The notes under the pieces: model-generated
What the model was told of the DNA's origin: nothing
Database searches by the model: none
The model's input: only the letters and a program-made list of their open reading frames with translations
Position numbers and translations under genes: made by a program
Shown: piece after piece, positions 1,490 to 54,780 of the stretch
Layout of the letters: each line of letters opens with the position of its first letter
How positions within the stretch are numbered: position 1 is the first letter of the stretch
DNA from: Asanoa hainanensis
Lineage (GTDB): Bacteria > Actinomycetota > Actinomycetes > Mycobacteriales > Micromonosporaceae
Direction: 5' to 3'
Assembly: GCF_900188485.1 (NCBI RefSeq)
Contig: NZ_FZPH01000002.1
Span: 1 to 64,000, forward strand
DNA length: 64,000 nucleotides

Positions 1490-2479
1490 CTACATTGTCC
1501 GCGTTCCGCCGATCGACAGCTCCCAGAGGTCGGCGAGGTCACGGCCGGCGGCCGTCCACGCGGCGCGCAGTCGCTCGGGCGGCTCCAGCAGGGGCTCGCT
1601 GCTGAGCGGGAAGGTGCCCCAGTGCATTCCCGCGACCTTCCGGACACCCAGGTCTTCGGCGGCCTGGACCGCGTCCTCCGGGTTCAGGTGCTGGTTGCGC
1701 ATGAACCAGCGCGGCTCGTACGCGCCGATCGGCAGCAGGGCCAGGTCGAGGTCGGGGAAGCGGCCGGCGATCTCGGCGAACCGCGCGCCGTAGCCGGTGT
1801 CACCGGCGAAGTAGATCTTCGGCCCCCGGTCGGTGGTCAGCACCCAGCCGCCCCAGAGGCTCTTGTTGGTGTCGGCCAGGCTCCGGCGGCTCCAGTGGTG
1901 CGCCGGCACGAAGGTGAACTCCACCGGGCCGATCCGCCGGGACTCCCACCAGTCCCGCTCGGTGACGTCCGCGAACCCGCGGCGACGAAACCACCAGGCC
2001 AGGTTCGCGGGTACGAGCATCGGCGTCGACCGGGGCAGCCGTTCGATGGTCGGCGCGTCCAGGTGGTCGTAGTGGTTGTGGGAGATCAGCACCGCGTCGA
2101 CCGGGGGCAGCCCCGCCCAGGCCACGCCCGGCGAGGTGTAGCGGGCGATGAACGGCGGGATCCGCTGTGCCCAGACGGGGTCGGTCAGCACCGTGAGGCC
2201 GCCCGTTTGCAGCACGAAGCTGGCATGCCCGACCCAGGTGACGGCCGTGGTTCCCGGTTCGGCCGGTGGCAAGGTGGCCTGCGGTTCCTGCGGGATGGCT
2301 TTGCCGGCGCGGTCCCGGTCGGCGGCGCTCGGGCGCCTCTCGCGCATCATCCTTGCGATGTCGCCGACGCCGGGCAGCGGTGCGGTCAGCCGGTCCGCGA
2401 AGGTCGGCGGCCACTGTCGACCGTCATGGTTTCGGCGTGCGTCCTCGATGCGGCGGCGTACGCGGCTGGGATCGAACAC
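1490..2479 (-). CDS. MBL-fold metallo-hydrolase (NAPE-PLD/UlaG-like)
   Basis: A 329-residue metallo-beta-lactamase-fold hydrolase with a GTG start. The signature ISHNHYDHLD supplies metal ligands H134, H136, D138 and H139. Further ligands are expected in the motifs AHHWS, FAGDTGYG and GMHWGTF. The upstream WVGHASFVLQ...LTDPVW segment is characteristic of the Lactamase_B_2 group, which includes N-acylphosphatidylethanolamine phospholipase D and UlaG lactonases. No signal peptide is visible, so it is probably cytoplasmic. It is the first gene of a pair with the methyltransferase. Its start faces the heme oxygenase gene across 91 bp that hold a candidate iron box. The substrate is unknown. Confidence 0.85.
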   Translation of the reverse strand: MFDPSRVRRRIEDARRNHDGRQWPPTFADRLTAPLPGVGDIARMMRERRPSAADRDRAGKAIPQEPQATLPPAEPGTTAVTWVGHASFVLQTGGLTVLTDPVWAQRIPPFIARYTSPGVAWAGLPPVDAVLISHNHYDHLDAPTIERLPRSTPMLVPANLAWWFRRRGFADVTERDWWESRRIGPVEFTFVPAHHWSRRSLADTNKSLWGGWVLTTDRGPKIYFAGDTGYGARFAEIAGRFPDLDLALLPIGAYEPRWFMRNQHLNPEDAVQAAEDLGVRKVAGMHWGTFPLSSEPLLEPPERLRAAWTAAGRDLADLWELSIGGTRTM

Positions 2480-2516
2480 TTACCCACCGTCCGCGCGACA
2501 CCACTGGACCGTCAAG

Positions 2517-2535
2517 TAAGGGTCGCCTAAGCTCA
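2517..2535 (+). promoter_or_regulatory. Candidate IdeR/DtxR iron box upstream of hmuO
   Basis: The 19-mer TAAGGGTCGCCTAAGCTCA matches the DtxR/IdeR consensus TTAGGTTAGSCTAACCTAA at 14 of 19 positions (my own count), including the core GCCTAA. It ends 35 nt before the hmuO start, where a promoter-overlapping operator would lie. In Corynebacterium the heme oxygenase gene is repressed by DtxR, so iron control here is plausible. It could equally affect the divergent MBL gene. No binding evidence is available. Confidence 0.5.
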
Positions 2536-2570
2536 CGGCACTACCCACGGCCGGGTGCGGGAGGTCAAAC

Positions 2571-3215
2571 ATGGTCAACGCAGCCGACACGGAACTGGGC
2601 CTCGCGGCGCGGGTCCGCTCCCTGACCCGCGCTGACCACGAGGCGGCGGAGACCACGCCGTTCGTGGGCGACCTGATGGCGGGGCGGTTGGACGTCGCGG
2701 CGTACGCGCGGCTGGTCACCCAGCACTACTTCATCTACGAGACGCTCGAGCGGGCCGCGTCGGCGATGCGCGCCGATCCGGTGGCCGGCGACTTCGTGGC
2801 CTTCGGGCTCGACCGGGTGCCGGCGCTCGGCGCCGACCTGCACCACCTGCGCGGGCCGGCCTGGCGCTCGGAGATCACCCCGCTGCCGGCCACCCGCGCC
2901 TACCTGGCCCGGCTGCGCTCGGTCGCGTTCGTGGACCCGCCGGCGTTCGTGGCGCACCACTACACGCGCTACCTGGGTGACCTGTCGGGCGGGCAGATGG
3001 TCAAACGCGCCCTGCGGCAGGCGTACGGCGTGGGCGCGGCCGGCACGTGCTTCTACGAGTTCCCGGGCGTGGCCGCCGGTGCGGTCAAGCGGCGCTATCG
3101 CGAGCTGCTCGACGCCGCACCGTGGTCGGCCGACGAACAGGCGCGCTTCATCGACGAGGCGAAACGCGCCTTCACGCACAACCGCCAGGTCTTCGAAGAC
3201 CTGGCGGTTGTTTAG
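2571..3215 (+). CDS. hmuO: Heme oxygenase (biliverdin-producing)
   Basis: A 214-residue soluble heme oxygenase of the HO-1/HmuO family, which opens heme to biliverdin, CO and free iron using oxygen and electrons. The N-terminal helix LTRADHEAAE carries the probable proximal heme ligand H23. The distal helix is the canonical YLGDLSGGQMVKRAL, whose glycines allow heme bending. Length is typical of bacterial members (about 215). It stands alone between a divergent hydrolase and a convergent helicase. A likely iron box lies upstream, consistent with heme-iron scavenging under iron limitation. A 30-bp palindrome covers its last codons. Confidence 0.95.
   Translation: MVNAADTELGLAARVRSLTRADHEAAETTPFVGDLMAGRLDVAAYARLVTQHYFIYETLERAASAMRADPVAGDFVAFGLDRVPALGADLHHLRGPAWRSEITPLPATRAYLARLRSVAFVDPPAFVAHHYTRYLGDLSGGQMVKRALRQAYGVGAAGTCFYEFPGVAAGAVKRRYRELLDAAPWSADEQARFIDEAKRAFTHNRQVFEDLAVV
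3180..3209. terminator. Palindromic terminator inside the 3' end of hmuO
   Basis: The arms AACCGCCAGGTCTTC and GAAGACCTGGCGGTT form a perfect 30-bp palindrome covering the final codons of hmuO (QVFEDLAVV). The + strand continues GTTTAGCGGTTTTT, so a T-rich tract follows closely. The convergent helicase gene ends at 3228, so the structure can serve both strands. A real hairpin would leave a few bases unpaired at the tip. Confidence 0.7.
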
Positions 3216-41461: not shown

Positions 41462-41603
41462 GGGGCGGGTCCCGTTGTCGGGCGTAGCCCACCAATCAGG
41501 ATCTCCGGGCGGTGACAAGGTGGAGCGCCCTGCTGGACGTACGACCTTGTCACCGCCCGGAGATCCTGATGCCCTTGCGAAGTCCGAGAACGGGACCCGC
41601 CCC
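41462..41603. repeat. Nested palindromic repeat, copy A
   Basis: Outer arms GGGGCGGGTCCCGTT (41462-41476) and its exact complement (41589-41603) enclose inner arms of 26 nt (41496-41521 and 41544-41569) that are perfectly complementary. The 22-nt loop contains GGAGCGCCCT. A matching element, copy B, lies at 54579-54720. Several differences between copies come in complementary pairs, so the structure is kept while the sequence changes. It could be a transposon-derived palindrome, a long RNA hairpin at the 3' end of the nuo transcript, or a protein-binding site. It carries no open reading frame I would accept. Confidence 0.85.
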
Positions 41604-41623
41604 TTCCCCTGGGTCCCCGCAGC

Positions 41624-42325
41624 TCGGGTGGGGACCGGGGCAAAGCCCCGGAAACCCGACCACCGAACTCCGCCCAGCCAGCTCGCCCGAATTCGGCAGC
41701 GGGCAGCCTTCCTCTCGCGGCCGGCGGGAGTTCGGGCGGGTTCCGCGACAAGGCCCCGGAGACCCGCCCAGCGGGCGCCGCCCGGCCAGGTTGCGTGGGG
41801 TTTGGCGGCGGGCTGGCTTTCTCCTGGTGGGTGCCCGGGGTTCGGGTGGGTCCGTGACAAGGCCCCGGAAACACGACCAGCGAACTCTGCCCAGGCAGCT
41901 TGCCTGGATTCGGCAGCGGGCTGGCTTCCTCTTCGCGGCCGGCCGGAGTTCGGGTGGGTTCCGGGACAAGGCGCAGGGGACGCGCCCAGCGGGCGCCGCC
42001 CGGCCAGGTTGCGTGGGGTTCGGCGGCGGGCTGGCTTCTTCGGTTTGGGTGGCTGGGGTTCGGGTGGGTTTGGGGCGAAGCCCCGGGAGACGCGACGAGC
42101 GAACTTCGCGTAGGCGGATTGTGTGGGTCCGTGAGGGGGTTGGCTTCTTCGGTTTGGGTGGCTGGGGTTCGGGTGGGTTTGGGGCGAAGCCCCGTAGACC
42201 CGACGAGCGAACTCCGCCCAGGCGGATCGCGTGGAACCGCGAGGGGCTGGCTTCTTCCGGGTGGGTGGCCGGAGTTCGGGTGCGGTTCGGGGGCAAAGCC
42301 CCCGAGACACGACCAGGAGCACTAA
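41624..42325. repeat. Tandem array of seven degenerate ~109-bp units
   Basis: The anchor TCGGG recurs at 41624, 41732, 41842, 41950, 42060, 42169 and 42276, so successive units are 108, 110, 108, 110, 109 and 107 nt. Each unit has a core like CCGGGGC-AAA-GCCCCGG (variants GGGGC-GAA-GCCCC), a segment like CGACGAGCGAACTCCGCCCAG, and GGCTGGCTTCTTC. The last unit is truncated. Unit length is not a multiple of three, so it is not a protein repeat. The first unit follows the palindrome and its tail; copy B near 54.7 kb has only the start of one unit. Confidence 0.85.
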
Positions 42326-54253: not shown

Positions 54254-54318
54254 GCGTGGCTCTTGGGCGCTGTTCGCCTCGACGGGCTCGTTCTTCGCGT
54301 TGGGTTGCGGTCTTGGTC
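54254..54318. other. Short intergenic stretch before the long inverted repeat
   Basis: Sixty-five nt between the rplA terminator and the 26-bp inverted repeat. I see no gene, promoter or repeat in it. Confidence 0.5.
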
Positions 54319-54394
54319 GGGGGAGGATGTTGTGGGTGCCGACAGGCCGCAAAGAGCGCGACCTCTATTGTCGGCACCCACAACATCCTCCCCC
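54319..54394. repeat. Perfect 26-bp inverted repeat
   Basis: The left arm 54319-54344 (starting GGGGGAGGATGTTG) and the right arm 54369-54394 are exact complements over 26 nt, around a 24-nt centre. The arms are unrelated in sequence to the other palindrome in this intergenic region. If transcribed it would fold into a very stable hairpin; as DNA it could extrude a cruciform or bind a dimeric protein. I see no gene in the roughly 185 nt between it and the next palindrome. Confidence 0.85.
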
Positions 54395-54578
54395 GCCCTG
54401 ACCCAGTTCGTCGCGAGCGACTTCGCTTGCGGTGCGTGGGACACAGTCCCTTTGGTCGCGGAGCGTTGGGGTCTCTTCTCGCGGGACCGGGTCGTGGGCG
54501 AGTTGCGGTCCATGGTGGACGCCACTCGCGGACGCGCGCGGCGTCTTAAGGTCGTGGCCCCATACGAAGCCGCAGCTT

Positions 54579-54780
54579 GGGGTGGGTCCCGTTGTCGGGC
54601 GTAGTTCTTTTGTCAGGATCTTCGGGTGGTGACAAGGTGGAGCGCCCTACCGGACGAACGACCTTGTCACCACCCGAAGATCCTGATGCTCTTGCGAAGT
54701 CCGACAACGGGACCCACCCCTTCCCCTGGGTCCCCGCAGATCGCGGCGGGGTCCGGGGCAAAGCCCCGGAGACGCGACCA
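54579..54780. repeat. Nested palindromic repeat, copy B, plus the start of the tandem-type unit
   Basis: Outer arms of 20 nt (54579-54598 and 54701-54720) enclose inner arms of 26 nt (54613-54638 and 54661-54686), with a 22-nt loop. Against copy A at 41462-41603, T replaces C in GGGGTGGG and A replaces G in the opposite arm; two more paired changes occur in the inner arms. After it come TTCCCCTGGGTCCCCGCAG and the hairpin core CCGGGGC-AAA-GCCCCGG (54753-54769), the same tail that starts the tandem array behind copy A. No open frame is acceptable here. Confidence 0.85.

What the first reader, a model, noticed from the sequence alone, without database searches (positions are those of the whole stretch)
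41462..41603. Two-copy nested palindrome with complementary (covarying) changes
The element at 41462-41603 and the one at 54579-54720 are clearly the same sequence. Their arms differ at positions that change in pairs: GGGGCGGG/CCCGCCCC against GGGGTGGG/CCCACCCC in the outer stem, and two further C-to-T changes in the left inner arm matched by G-to-A in the right arm. In both copies each stem remains perfect. That is the mark of selection on structure, or of gene conversion between arms. Both sit at 3' ends of + strand transcription units (nuoN and rplA), both have a 22-nt loop starting GGAGCGCCCT, and both are followed by the same tail. I know of no described family matching it; no search was possible.
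Basis: seen in the sequence. Interest (0 to 1): 0.82.

Follow-up and report, generated by a model that had tools for sequence, protein, structure and literature searches.

The report
Orphan capped hairpin of mobile elements
Two matching DNA hairpins in this soil bacterium belong to an apparently undescribed hairpin family, spread through actinobacteria and sometimes carried by mobile elements, in which sequence changes freely while the folded shape and a nearly fixed tip are kept, so the fold itself seems to be what is recognised.

Summary
The window lies in an Asanoa genome with five full copies; all six Asanoa genomes searched match, and relatives occur in Micromonospora, Streptomyces plasmids and other actinobacteria. 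The element is a hairpin: basal stem, junction (a four-way junction in some relatives), 26-28 bp arm, and a nearly fixed 22-nt cap (GGAG-CGCCC-NNNN-GGACG-WACG).

Covariation is overwhelming: 21 of 27 arm pairs change on both sides, 0 of 500 shuffles reach the observed values. Outside Asanoa, stem wobbles are G.T rather than A.C on one strand (35:3), so one strand is the folding one; Asanoa copies show no such bias.

Some relatives belong to integrative elements. The circular element pMR2 carries it, and in 20 of 20 distinct loci with an integrase match the folding strand is the integrase sense strand. Three Asanoa elements of pMR2 type have no match, so it is not obligatory. The window genome has no pMR2-type replication protein: its copies look like orphans parked near gene 3' ends.

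Best mechanism (unproven): a structure-recognised single-strand element, most like a single-strand origin of rolling-circle replication. A structured RNA or terminator remains open. Rfam 15 and the papers searched gave no matching family.

The parts
41462..41603 (+). Element copy 1 (nuoN-downstream). Folding strand defined as the one on which the cap reads GGAGCGCCC
41462..41483 (+). Copy 1, basal stem P1, 5' strand (22 nt; one G.G mismatch, 41477/41588)
41484..41494 (+). Copy 1, junction 5' side (a possible mini-hairpin GGGC-GTA-GCCC reaches into it; not in the MFE fold)
   Evidence: by eye
41495..41521 (+). Copy 1, apical arm P3, 5' strand (27 nt)
41522..41543 (+). Copy 1, nearly fixed cap GGAG-CGCCC-TGCT-GGACG-TACG
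41544..41570 (+). Copy 1, apical arm P3, 3' strand
41571..41581 (+). Copy 1, junction 3' side
41582..41603 (+). Copy 1, basal stem P1, 3' strand
41604..41661 (+). Conserved tail of copy 1 with two small hairpins (GGTCCCC...GGGGACC and CCGGGGC-AAA-GCCCCGG, by eye); right limit approximate
54579..54720 (+). Element copy 2 (375 nt after the rplA stop)
54612..54638 (+). Copy 2, apical arm P3, 5' strand
54639..54660 (+). Copy 2, cap GGAG-CGCCC-TACC-GGACG-AACG
54661..54687 (+). Copy 2, apical arm P3, 3' strand
54721..54779 (+). Conserved tail of copy 2; right limit approximate

Best explanation
The two palindromes are stand-alone copies of an undescribed (as far as searched) actinobacterial hairpin family. 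Its best-documented setting is a non-coding piece of integrative elements: pMR2 and what look like cut-down relatives with cargo genes. One strand folds into a basal stem, a junction that can form two mini-hairpins, and a 26-28 bp arm ending in a nearly fixed cap with an internal loop; the fold and the cap, not the arm sequence, are conserved. Most likely mechanism (inferred): when the element becomes single-stranded during rolling-circle replication or transfer, the strand carrying the int/rep sense sequence folds, and the cap and junction are recognised by a host or element protein that starts second-strand synthesis, as a single-strand origin does. In Asanoa the hairpin has come loose from such elements, inserted singly or as inverted pairs near gene 3' ends, and there acts at most as a passive two-way transcription barrier. 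Shown: family, fold, one-strand bias outside Asanoa, presence on pMR2 and beside integrases, same orientation as int, presence/absence in Asanoa. Inferred: the molecule (ssDNA or RNA), the recogniser, the role, the direction of descent.
For: Covariation: 96.2% of cells paired against 70.9% shuffled (sd 1.1) and at most 48.9% when slid, 21 of 27 pairs changed on both sides (33 chosen copies); on all 75 elements reduced to 15 clusters 79.2% against 60.9% (sd 2.6), 0 of 5000 shuffles reach it. One folding strand: stem G.T 35, A.C 3 outside Asanoa; that strand more stable in 61 of 75. Setting: pMR2 carries the unit next to int and a tRNA-3'-end-like stretch; integrase matches are co-directional with the folding strand in 20 of 20 distinct loci; in L096 an integrase gene follows the unit directly, with no tra or rep match in that 4.75-kb contig. 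Precedent: the sso of ICEBs1 works in one orientation only, and that paper cites an sso (pBAA1) that still worked with changed sequence but kept secondary structure (PMC4595007, passages read); pMR2 has a RepSA-type rolling-circle initiator (PMC3218068, passages). Insertions: element present or absent at the ybaK and LuxR loci of sister genomes.
Against: Three pMR2-type elements in Asanoa (one in G003, two in G004; tra, rep, xis and int matched) have no match to the model in the 16.5-18 kb taken, so the hairpin is not obligatory. The window genome has no pMR2-type Rep and only a weak Tra match. Asanoa stems show no strand bias (1 G.T, 0 A.C). In most of the 92 entries no integrase was found in the DNA held. 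Of eight plasmid loci read with 4-5 kb on each side besides pMR2 none has an annotated integrase; L188 has an unannotated match and L184 has no annotation. The integrase lies left of the hairpin in pMR2 but right of it in 15 of the 20 loci, so the arrangement is not one fixed layout. No experiment on any copy was found.
Confidence: 0.37

Rival explanations
1. Structured RNA: the folding strand is transcribed (3' UTR or read-through from int/tra) and the capped arm is bound by a protein or processed, for example to end or stabilise transcripts or to regulate the element.
For: G.U wobbles on one strand, kept non-paired positions in the cap and a junction with possible mini-hairpins look like an RNA. 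The folding strand is the int sense strand. In Asanoa 12 of 14 nearby left genes run into the element.
Against: No Rfam match. No sigma-70-like site in the stretches scanned around the window copies (actinobacterial promoters may escape such a scan). No transcript data could be used. G.T pairs favour a folded strand of DNA just as well.
Confidence: 0.28
2. Non-autonomous mobile repeat (MITE/REP-like): a transposase or recombinase acting in trans recognises the folded strand, and the hairpin is simply the end that it needs.
For: Copies per genome vary (5 full in the window genome, 16 places in G001); presence/absence between sister genomes; in Asanoa inverted pairs with outer inverted repeats CTTTGGTTGCG...CGCAACCAAAG; similarity between Micromonospora copies ends at defined points.
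Against: No clear target-site duplication by eye; Y1/REP transposase not found in five of six Asanoa genomes, one broken match in the sixth; no transposase family recurs in more than two of the scanned neighbour ORFs of any set (most frequent families shown).
Confidence: 0.18
3. Folded-strand recombination site, like the attC sites of integrons, moving single-gene cassettes by a tyrosine recombinase.
For: Hairpin unit stands beside varied genes (restriction, Shedu, Pycsar, MazF-like and others) and, in some loci, tyrosine integrases; one strand folds.
Against: The conserved part is the tip, whereas in attC the core sites near the base are conserved (recalled); a conventional tRNA-like stretch lies next to int in pMR2 (by eye); orientation of the left-hand gene is not fixed.
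Confidence: 0.07
4. Bidirectional transcription terminator kept between genes, the paired changes being arm-to-arm correction (template switching) and not selection.
For: Asanoa copies are near-perfect palindromes without strand bias and tend to follow genes; 9 of 13 right-hand genes within 600 nt also run towards them; one Streptomyces plasmid copy lies between converging genes.
Against: Cannot explain a nearly fixed cap from Nocardiopsis to Asanoa, one-strand wobbles and kept mismatches that correction would erase, or the orientation relative to integrases. No T-run follows the stem in either window copy (the scans cannot judge a 22-nt loop).
Confidence: 0.1

Closest known systems
Single-strand origins (sso; sti of pIJ101, sso1 of ICEBs1)
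   Same: Non-coding, one strand folds, orientation-dependent, structure reported to matter as well as or instead of sequence, found on rolling-circle plasmids and ICEs (PMC4595007 and PMC4170104, passages read)
   Different: No sequence kinship shown; the sso of ICEBs1/pBAA1 is a set of three stem-loops (PMC4595007, passages); no activity shown here
clt loci (cis-acting transfer sites bound by TraB)
   Same: Non-coding, on the same kinds of elements, inverted repeats plus short direct repeats; TTCGGCA(A/G) stands three times inside the unit in 12 of 58 loci (two of the 12 being one record)
   Different: clt of pIJ101 and pWTY27 are about 54 and 175 bp with short direct repeats (PMC3583192, passages read); transfer is thought to be of double-stranded DNA; no capped arm or covariation known to me
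REP/REPIN/GTAG- and CGTC-tagged palindromes with RAYT
   Same: Dispersed extragenic palindromes, single or as inverted pairs; GTAG occurs at the junction of many Asanoa copies
   Different: REPs are 20-40 bp and the GTAG kind has a Y1 transposase; here about 142 nt, few copies, Y1 not found in five of six genomes; a word search of that paper's text gave 0 for actinobacteria, Streptomyces, Micromonospora, Salinispora and Frankia (PMC3733652)
Integron attC sites
   Same: Hairpin next to varied genes, one strand favoured
   Different: Conservation at the tip and not in core sites at the base (attC anatomy recalled)

Membership tests
AICE (actinomycete integrative and conjugative element) module | Located on an element with int, xis, rep and FtsK-like Tra | tested here: met
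   pMR2, NC_006910.1; tra matches also near the copies in L106 and L097. Met for some relatives only
AICE (actinomycete integrative and conjugative element) module | Present in every element of that type | tested here: not met
   0 of 3 Asanoa pMR2-type elements have a match in the 16.5-18 kb taken
AICE (actinomycete integrative and conjugative element) module | The window copies themselves lie in an AICE | tested here: not met
   They lie after nuoN and rplA; no pMR2-type rep in the window genome
Single-strand origin (sso/sti) | Strand-specific secondary structure | tested here: met
   for non-Asanoa copies; not met in Asanoa
Single-strand origin (sso/sti) | Fixed orientation relative to replication/integration genes | tested here: met
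   20 of 20 distinct loci with an integrase match; rep seen only in pMR2. The window copies have no such gene nearby
Single-strand origin (sso/sti) | Promotes second-strand synthesis | not testable with these tools
   needs an ssDNA assay
clt | Bound by the element's FtsK-like Tra protein at repeated short motifs | not testable with these tools
   repeated TTCGGCA(A/G) is a lead only
REP/RAYT repeats | Y1 (RAYT) transposase in the genome | tested here: not met
   PF01797: 0 matches in 5 of 6 Asanoa genomes, one match with a stop in G003
REP/RAYT repeats | 20-40 bp, high copy number | tested here: not met
   about 142 nt, five full copies in the window genome; REP size from the PMC3733652 abstract (listing)
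MITE | Terminal inverted repeats with target-site duplication | tested here: inconclusive
   Inverted pairs with outer inverted repeats in Asanoa; no duplication seen by eye against empty sites
Intrinsic terminator | Hairpin followed by a T-run | tested here: not met
   Both copies are followed by TTCCCCTGGG. Scans allow loops of 3-8 only; the one '-' strand match (41468-41452) touches the left edge of copy 1 but is not its hairpin, 0.5 expected by chance
Integron attC | Conserved core sites at the base, variable tip | tested here: not met
   The tip is the most conserved part; attC anatomy recalled
Any Rfam 15 family | Score at gathering threshold | tested here: not met
   window; in eight related loci at E up to 1 the hairpins of three gave only sub-threshold miRNA-model matches (25-45 bits, thresholds 78 and 97), the other five none

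The most novel reading that the evidence does not exclude
A class of structure-recognised single-strand element spread over the Actinomycetota: a junction hairpin whose arm sequence is free but whose tip (an internal-loop motif GGAG/WACG between two helices) is nearly fixed from Streptomyces and Nocardiopsis to Asanoa, in the int sense orientation wherever an integrase is recognised, on or beside elements that carry cargo including defence-type genes. It implies one conserved host protein (or RNA polymerase) that reads the tip, and free copies such as those in the window are landing marks of past mobilisation.
Probability: 0.4. Interest if true: 0.82.

Novelty: new variant of a known kind. Interest (0 to 1): 0.64.

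Why it matters
It gives a searchable mark (a covariance model) for one kind of integrative element and its cargo, and a concrete candidate for how a lone strand of such an element is recognised in actinobacteria. The tip is so nearly fixed across families that finding its binding partner is a direct biochemical experiment. It also shows that a repeat which looks like an ordinary palindrome in one genome can be the worn-down form of a structured element.

Tried and rejected
REP/RAYT: rejected as membership, no Y1 transposase found in five of six Asanoa genomes. Known RNA family: no match. Phage origin: no exact pattern match in viral contigs, no similar DNA in phage records. Coding sequence: the cap can be read as a peptide, but a 3-nt loop occurs in some copies (L002, L030, L110) and the arms vary freely, so rejected. 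The rplA-terminator reading: thought unlikely. A simple attC reading: weak, see rivals. A clt reading from the TTCGGCA repeats: kept only as a lead. TnpB/omega-RNA and IS110 bridge RNA were considered by recall and not tested; IS110-type transposase genes beside some copies look like insertions into the hairpin's left flank.

Things that went wrong: the pattern had one N too many and found nothing; one search used the one repeat allowed. Scripts stopped part-way on a missing match; what they printed before that is used. In one search the locus L175 was read at a wrong offset and not examined. My gene caller (GC of the third codon position) is crude, so counts are approximate. Alignments A2, A3 and A6 hold unrelated proteins, only so that each could be scanned. 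On re-reading, three statements were weakened: the four-way junction is the best fold only in some relatives, 'short elements' rest on one small contig, and G001 has 16 copies, not about 20. The confidence of the best explanation was lowered from 0.40 to 0.37 for the second of these.

Full report
What is there. The window belongs to an Asanoa genome: a contig of the sister genome G003 has the same length, 3,023,953, as a record of A. ishikariensis DSM 44718. Two 142-nt elements lie at 41462-41603 and 54579-54720. Each is a nested palindrome: 22-bp basal stem, 11-nt junction strands, 27-bp arm, 22-nt cap. Both fold far better than shuffles. They differ by exactly three paired changes in the stems, all C-G to T-A; by one change that leaves a G.G mismatch in copy 1; by one A-T to G.T at the base of the inner arm; by seven changes in the unpaired junction; and by three in the cap. 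The genome has five full copies, one half copy and two tail-only matches.

Where they sit. Copy 1 begins 135 nt after the nuoN stop. Copy 2 begins 375 nt after the rplA stop, behind a terminator-like repeat that, by eye, all six Asanoa genomes keep (the scan did not call it) and behind another long hairpin. Both sites are occupied in G003 as well. In G001, G002, G004 and G005 no copy was seen in the 1.5 kb after nuoN; after rplA, G001 has a different variant in the opposite orientation and the other three show none (for G004 only about 1 kb was available). Between ybaK and the converging sugar permease gene, G005, G002 and G004 carry a composite of two inverted hairpins (the right one partial in G002, little left of it in G004), G003 and G001 are empty, and the window genome has only a tail there. 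After a LuxR-type gene only G003 has the composite. These are presence/absence differences, best read as insertions. No clear target-site duplication was seen by eye.

Family. All six Asanoa genomes match; 131 of 300 genomes of the family match the DNA query at E 0.001 or better, many only through the cap and inner arm, two candidates being scored per genome. A degenerate cap pattern finds 36 stretches in named genomes: 23 Micromonospora, 9 Asanoa, 2 Salinispora, 1 Phytohabitans, 1 Thermocatellispora. An exact cap pattern occurs in 6 of 396 genomes over the phylum, the window genome included, and its reversed control in none. Plasmid records with similar DNA are mostly Streptomyces (14 of 16 and 9 of 11 records for two related queries; 1 of 2 for the window element). 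The covariance model R1 of arm and cap finds 32 of 296 genomes of the class at E 1e-4; I looked at 29 loci. The weaker ones (about 39-55 bits) include caps with long extra loops and L174/L176, which overlap a predicted gene, so the lower end of that list is less certain. Viral contigs and phage records gave nothing.

Covariation. From 75 non-identical elements I picked 36 clean ones by eye and aligned 33 (dropping L030 and L110, whose caps are one base short, and L131, a poor stem; bulged copies were not picked). Of 27 arm pairs 21 have changes on both sides; 96.2% of cells pair against 70.9% in shuffles, and the covariation score is 0.632 against 0.162, 0 of 500 shuffles reaching either; sliding the partner drops pairing to 48.9% or less. 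This set favours good stems, so I also took all 75 without selection: reduced to 15 clusters at 80% identity, 79.2% paired against 60.9% (sd 2.6), 0 of 5000 shuffles. Relatedness means these are not probabilities. RNAalifold on 28 full-length copies gives 46 pairs, 28 with changes on both sides.

One strand. Taking the strand on which the cap reads GGAGCGCCC, arms alone are more stable on it in 61 of 75 copies; in 13 the other strand is more stable, 11 of these being Asanoa copies. In clean stems outside Asanoa there are 35 G.T and 3 A.C pairs (28 distinct stems; 8 bulged and 14 duplicate ones left out); in Asanoa 1 and 0 (15 distinct; 2 and 8 left out). The inner helix of the cap covaries too (CGCCC/GGACG, CGCGC/GTACG, CGCGC/GCACG, CTCCC/GGAAG) while its third pair stays C.A; pMR2 has C.C there and a further mismatch beside it. 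A process that only corrects palindromes would erase such wobbles and mismatches, so outside Asanoa selection on one folded strand is the better account. For the Asanoa copies, with near-perfect and strand-neutral stems, correction between arms is not excluded.

Setting. In Micromonospora similarity between copies starts at the left base of the hairpin and runs about 245-270 or 515-550 nt to the right; in 28 of 58 loci a sequence of the form TTGAT...AG...TTCGGCA follows. To the left lie varied, often low-GC genes; matches among 82 neighbouring ORFs of one set include type III methyltransferase, SduA, Pycsar, GmrSD and AAA proteins. Tyrosine integrases matched 5 of 73, 3 of 82 and 2 of 71 ORFs. 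Four loci share a left-end block of about 200-350 nt at roughly 1.2-6.8 kb from the hairpin, in L094 just after what reads by eye as an integrase C-terminus. The circular 11,188-bp element pMR2 of M. rosaria carries the unit at 2445-3019 on the minus strand, next to int and a tRNA-3'-end-like stretch, on the strand that is sense for int, xis, rep and tra. With pMR2 proteins and three other integrases as queries over 92 oriented element entries, an integrase was found in 21; the best match of all 21 is co-directional with the folding strand (20 distinct loci, two entries being one record; not all independent by descent). It lies to the right of the hairpin in 15 of the 20 and to the left in 5, pMR2 among the latter. 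Left-hand neighbour genes outside Asanoa show no orientation preference (22 against 17); right-hand ones are more often co-directional (22 against 9).

Against. pMR2-type elements in Asanoa G003 (one) and G004 (two), with tra, rep, xis and int matches and a tRNA gene about 0.1-1.5 kb beyond int, show no hairpin by the model or by a relaxed cap scan in the 16.5-18 kb taken. The window genome, G001, G002 and G005 have no match to pMR2 Rep, and the window genome only a weak Tra match. Of eight plasmid loci other than pMR2 read with 4-5 kb on each side, none has an annotated integrase (L184 has no annotation, L188 an unannotated match). So the hairpin is an optional passenger or a replaceable module, and the window copies are orphans.

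Mechanism. Orientation shared with int (and rep in pMR2), a folded strand whose sequence is free, and an element with a rolling-circle initiator together fit a single-strand origin best. The ICEBs1 sso works only in one orientation, and that paper cites the pBAA1 sso as still working with changed sequence but kept secondary structure (PMC4595007, passages). The clt loci of Streptomyces plasmids are a second candidate; the TTCGGCA repeats inside the unit are a lead (PMC3583192, passages). An RNA role is not excluded. I put the sso-like reading at 0.37, with family, fold and one-strand selection outside Asanoa much firmer (about 0.9) and the link of some relatives with integrative elements at about 0.8.

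Known or new. Rfam 15 has nothing at its thresholds. Nine paper searches listed no description of such a hairpin; they were read as listings, with word-search passages of PMC3733652, PMC3610266, PMC3218068, PMC4170104, PMC4595007 and PMC3583192. Most subscription papers, and the original pMR2 report (recalled, not seen), are not in the library.

Noticed in passing
window 54315-54398: A second, different long hairpin (30-nt arms, 97% complementary) between rplA and copy 2; by eye G004 has a variant with different arm sequence, also complementary, after its rplA. Probably another palindromic family; R1 scores it 37 bits without the cap.
   Followed up: partly
L048/L094 (one record), L124, L092 (Micromonospora): A shared 1.2-kb stretch with an IS110-family transposase gene lies just left of the hairpin (2.8 kb further out in L092), and the first bases of the basal stem differ there, as if the IS had inserted into the stem.
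   Followed up: partly
   Followed up: no
L095 1094-1140 and 7318-7364: 47-nt direct repeat that looks like a tRNA 3' end, bounding about 6.2 kb with two hairpin copies and low-GC genes (M. tulbaghiae).
   Followed up: partly
G000:C28:136352-136391: Tail of the element alone beside ybaK in the window genome, where sister genomes have hairpin composites or nothing.
   Followed up: partly
L068, L069, L070 (G005, G003): Inverted pairs of hairpins with outer inverted repeats like CTTTGGTTGCG enclose 0.4-1.3 kb of repeat-rich, apparently non-coding DNA between genes; the repeats inside differ at each site.
   Followed up: partly
L185, L188 (Streptomyces plasmids): AIPR and AbiV (L185) and AbiEii/AbiGii-type (L188) genes, names linked with phage defence, are annotated within about 5 kb of hairpin copies.
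   Followed up: no
L179, L180, L181: Caps with long extra loops between the CGCCC and GGACG halves, suggesting that the internal loop and inner helix, not the end loop, are the conserved part.
   Followed up: no
L121 (Phytohabitans flavus): Hairpin lies between a tRNA-Tyr and an 889-aa ORF, which is probably the one TrwC-relaxase match (the table does not name the member); a second kind of conjugative setting.
   Followed up: no
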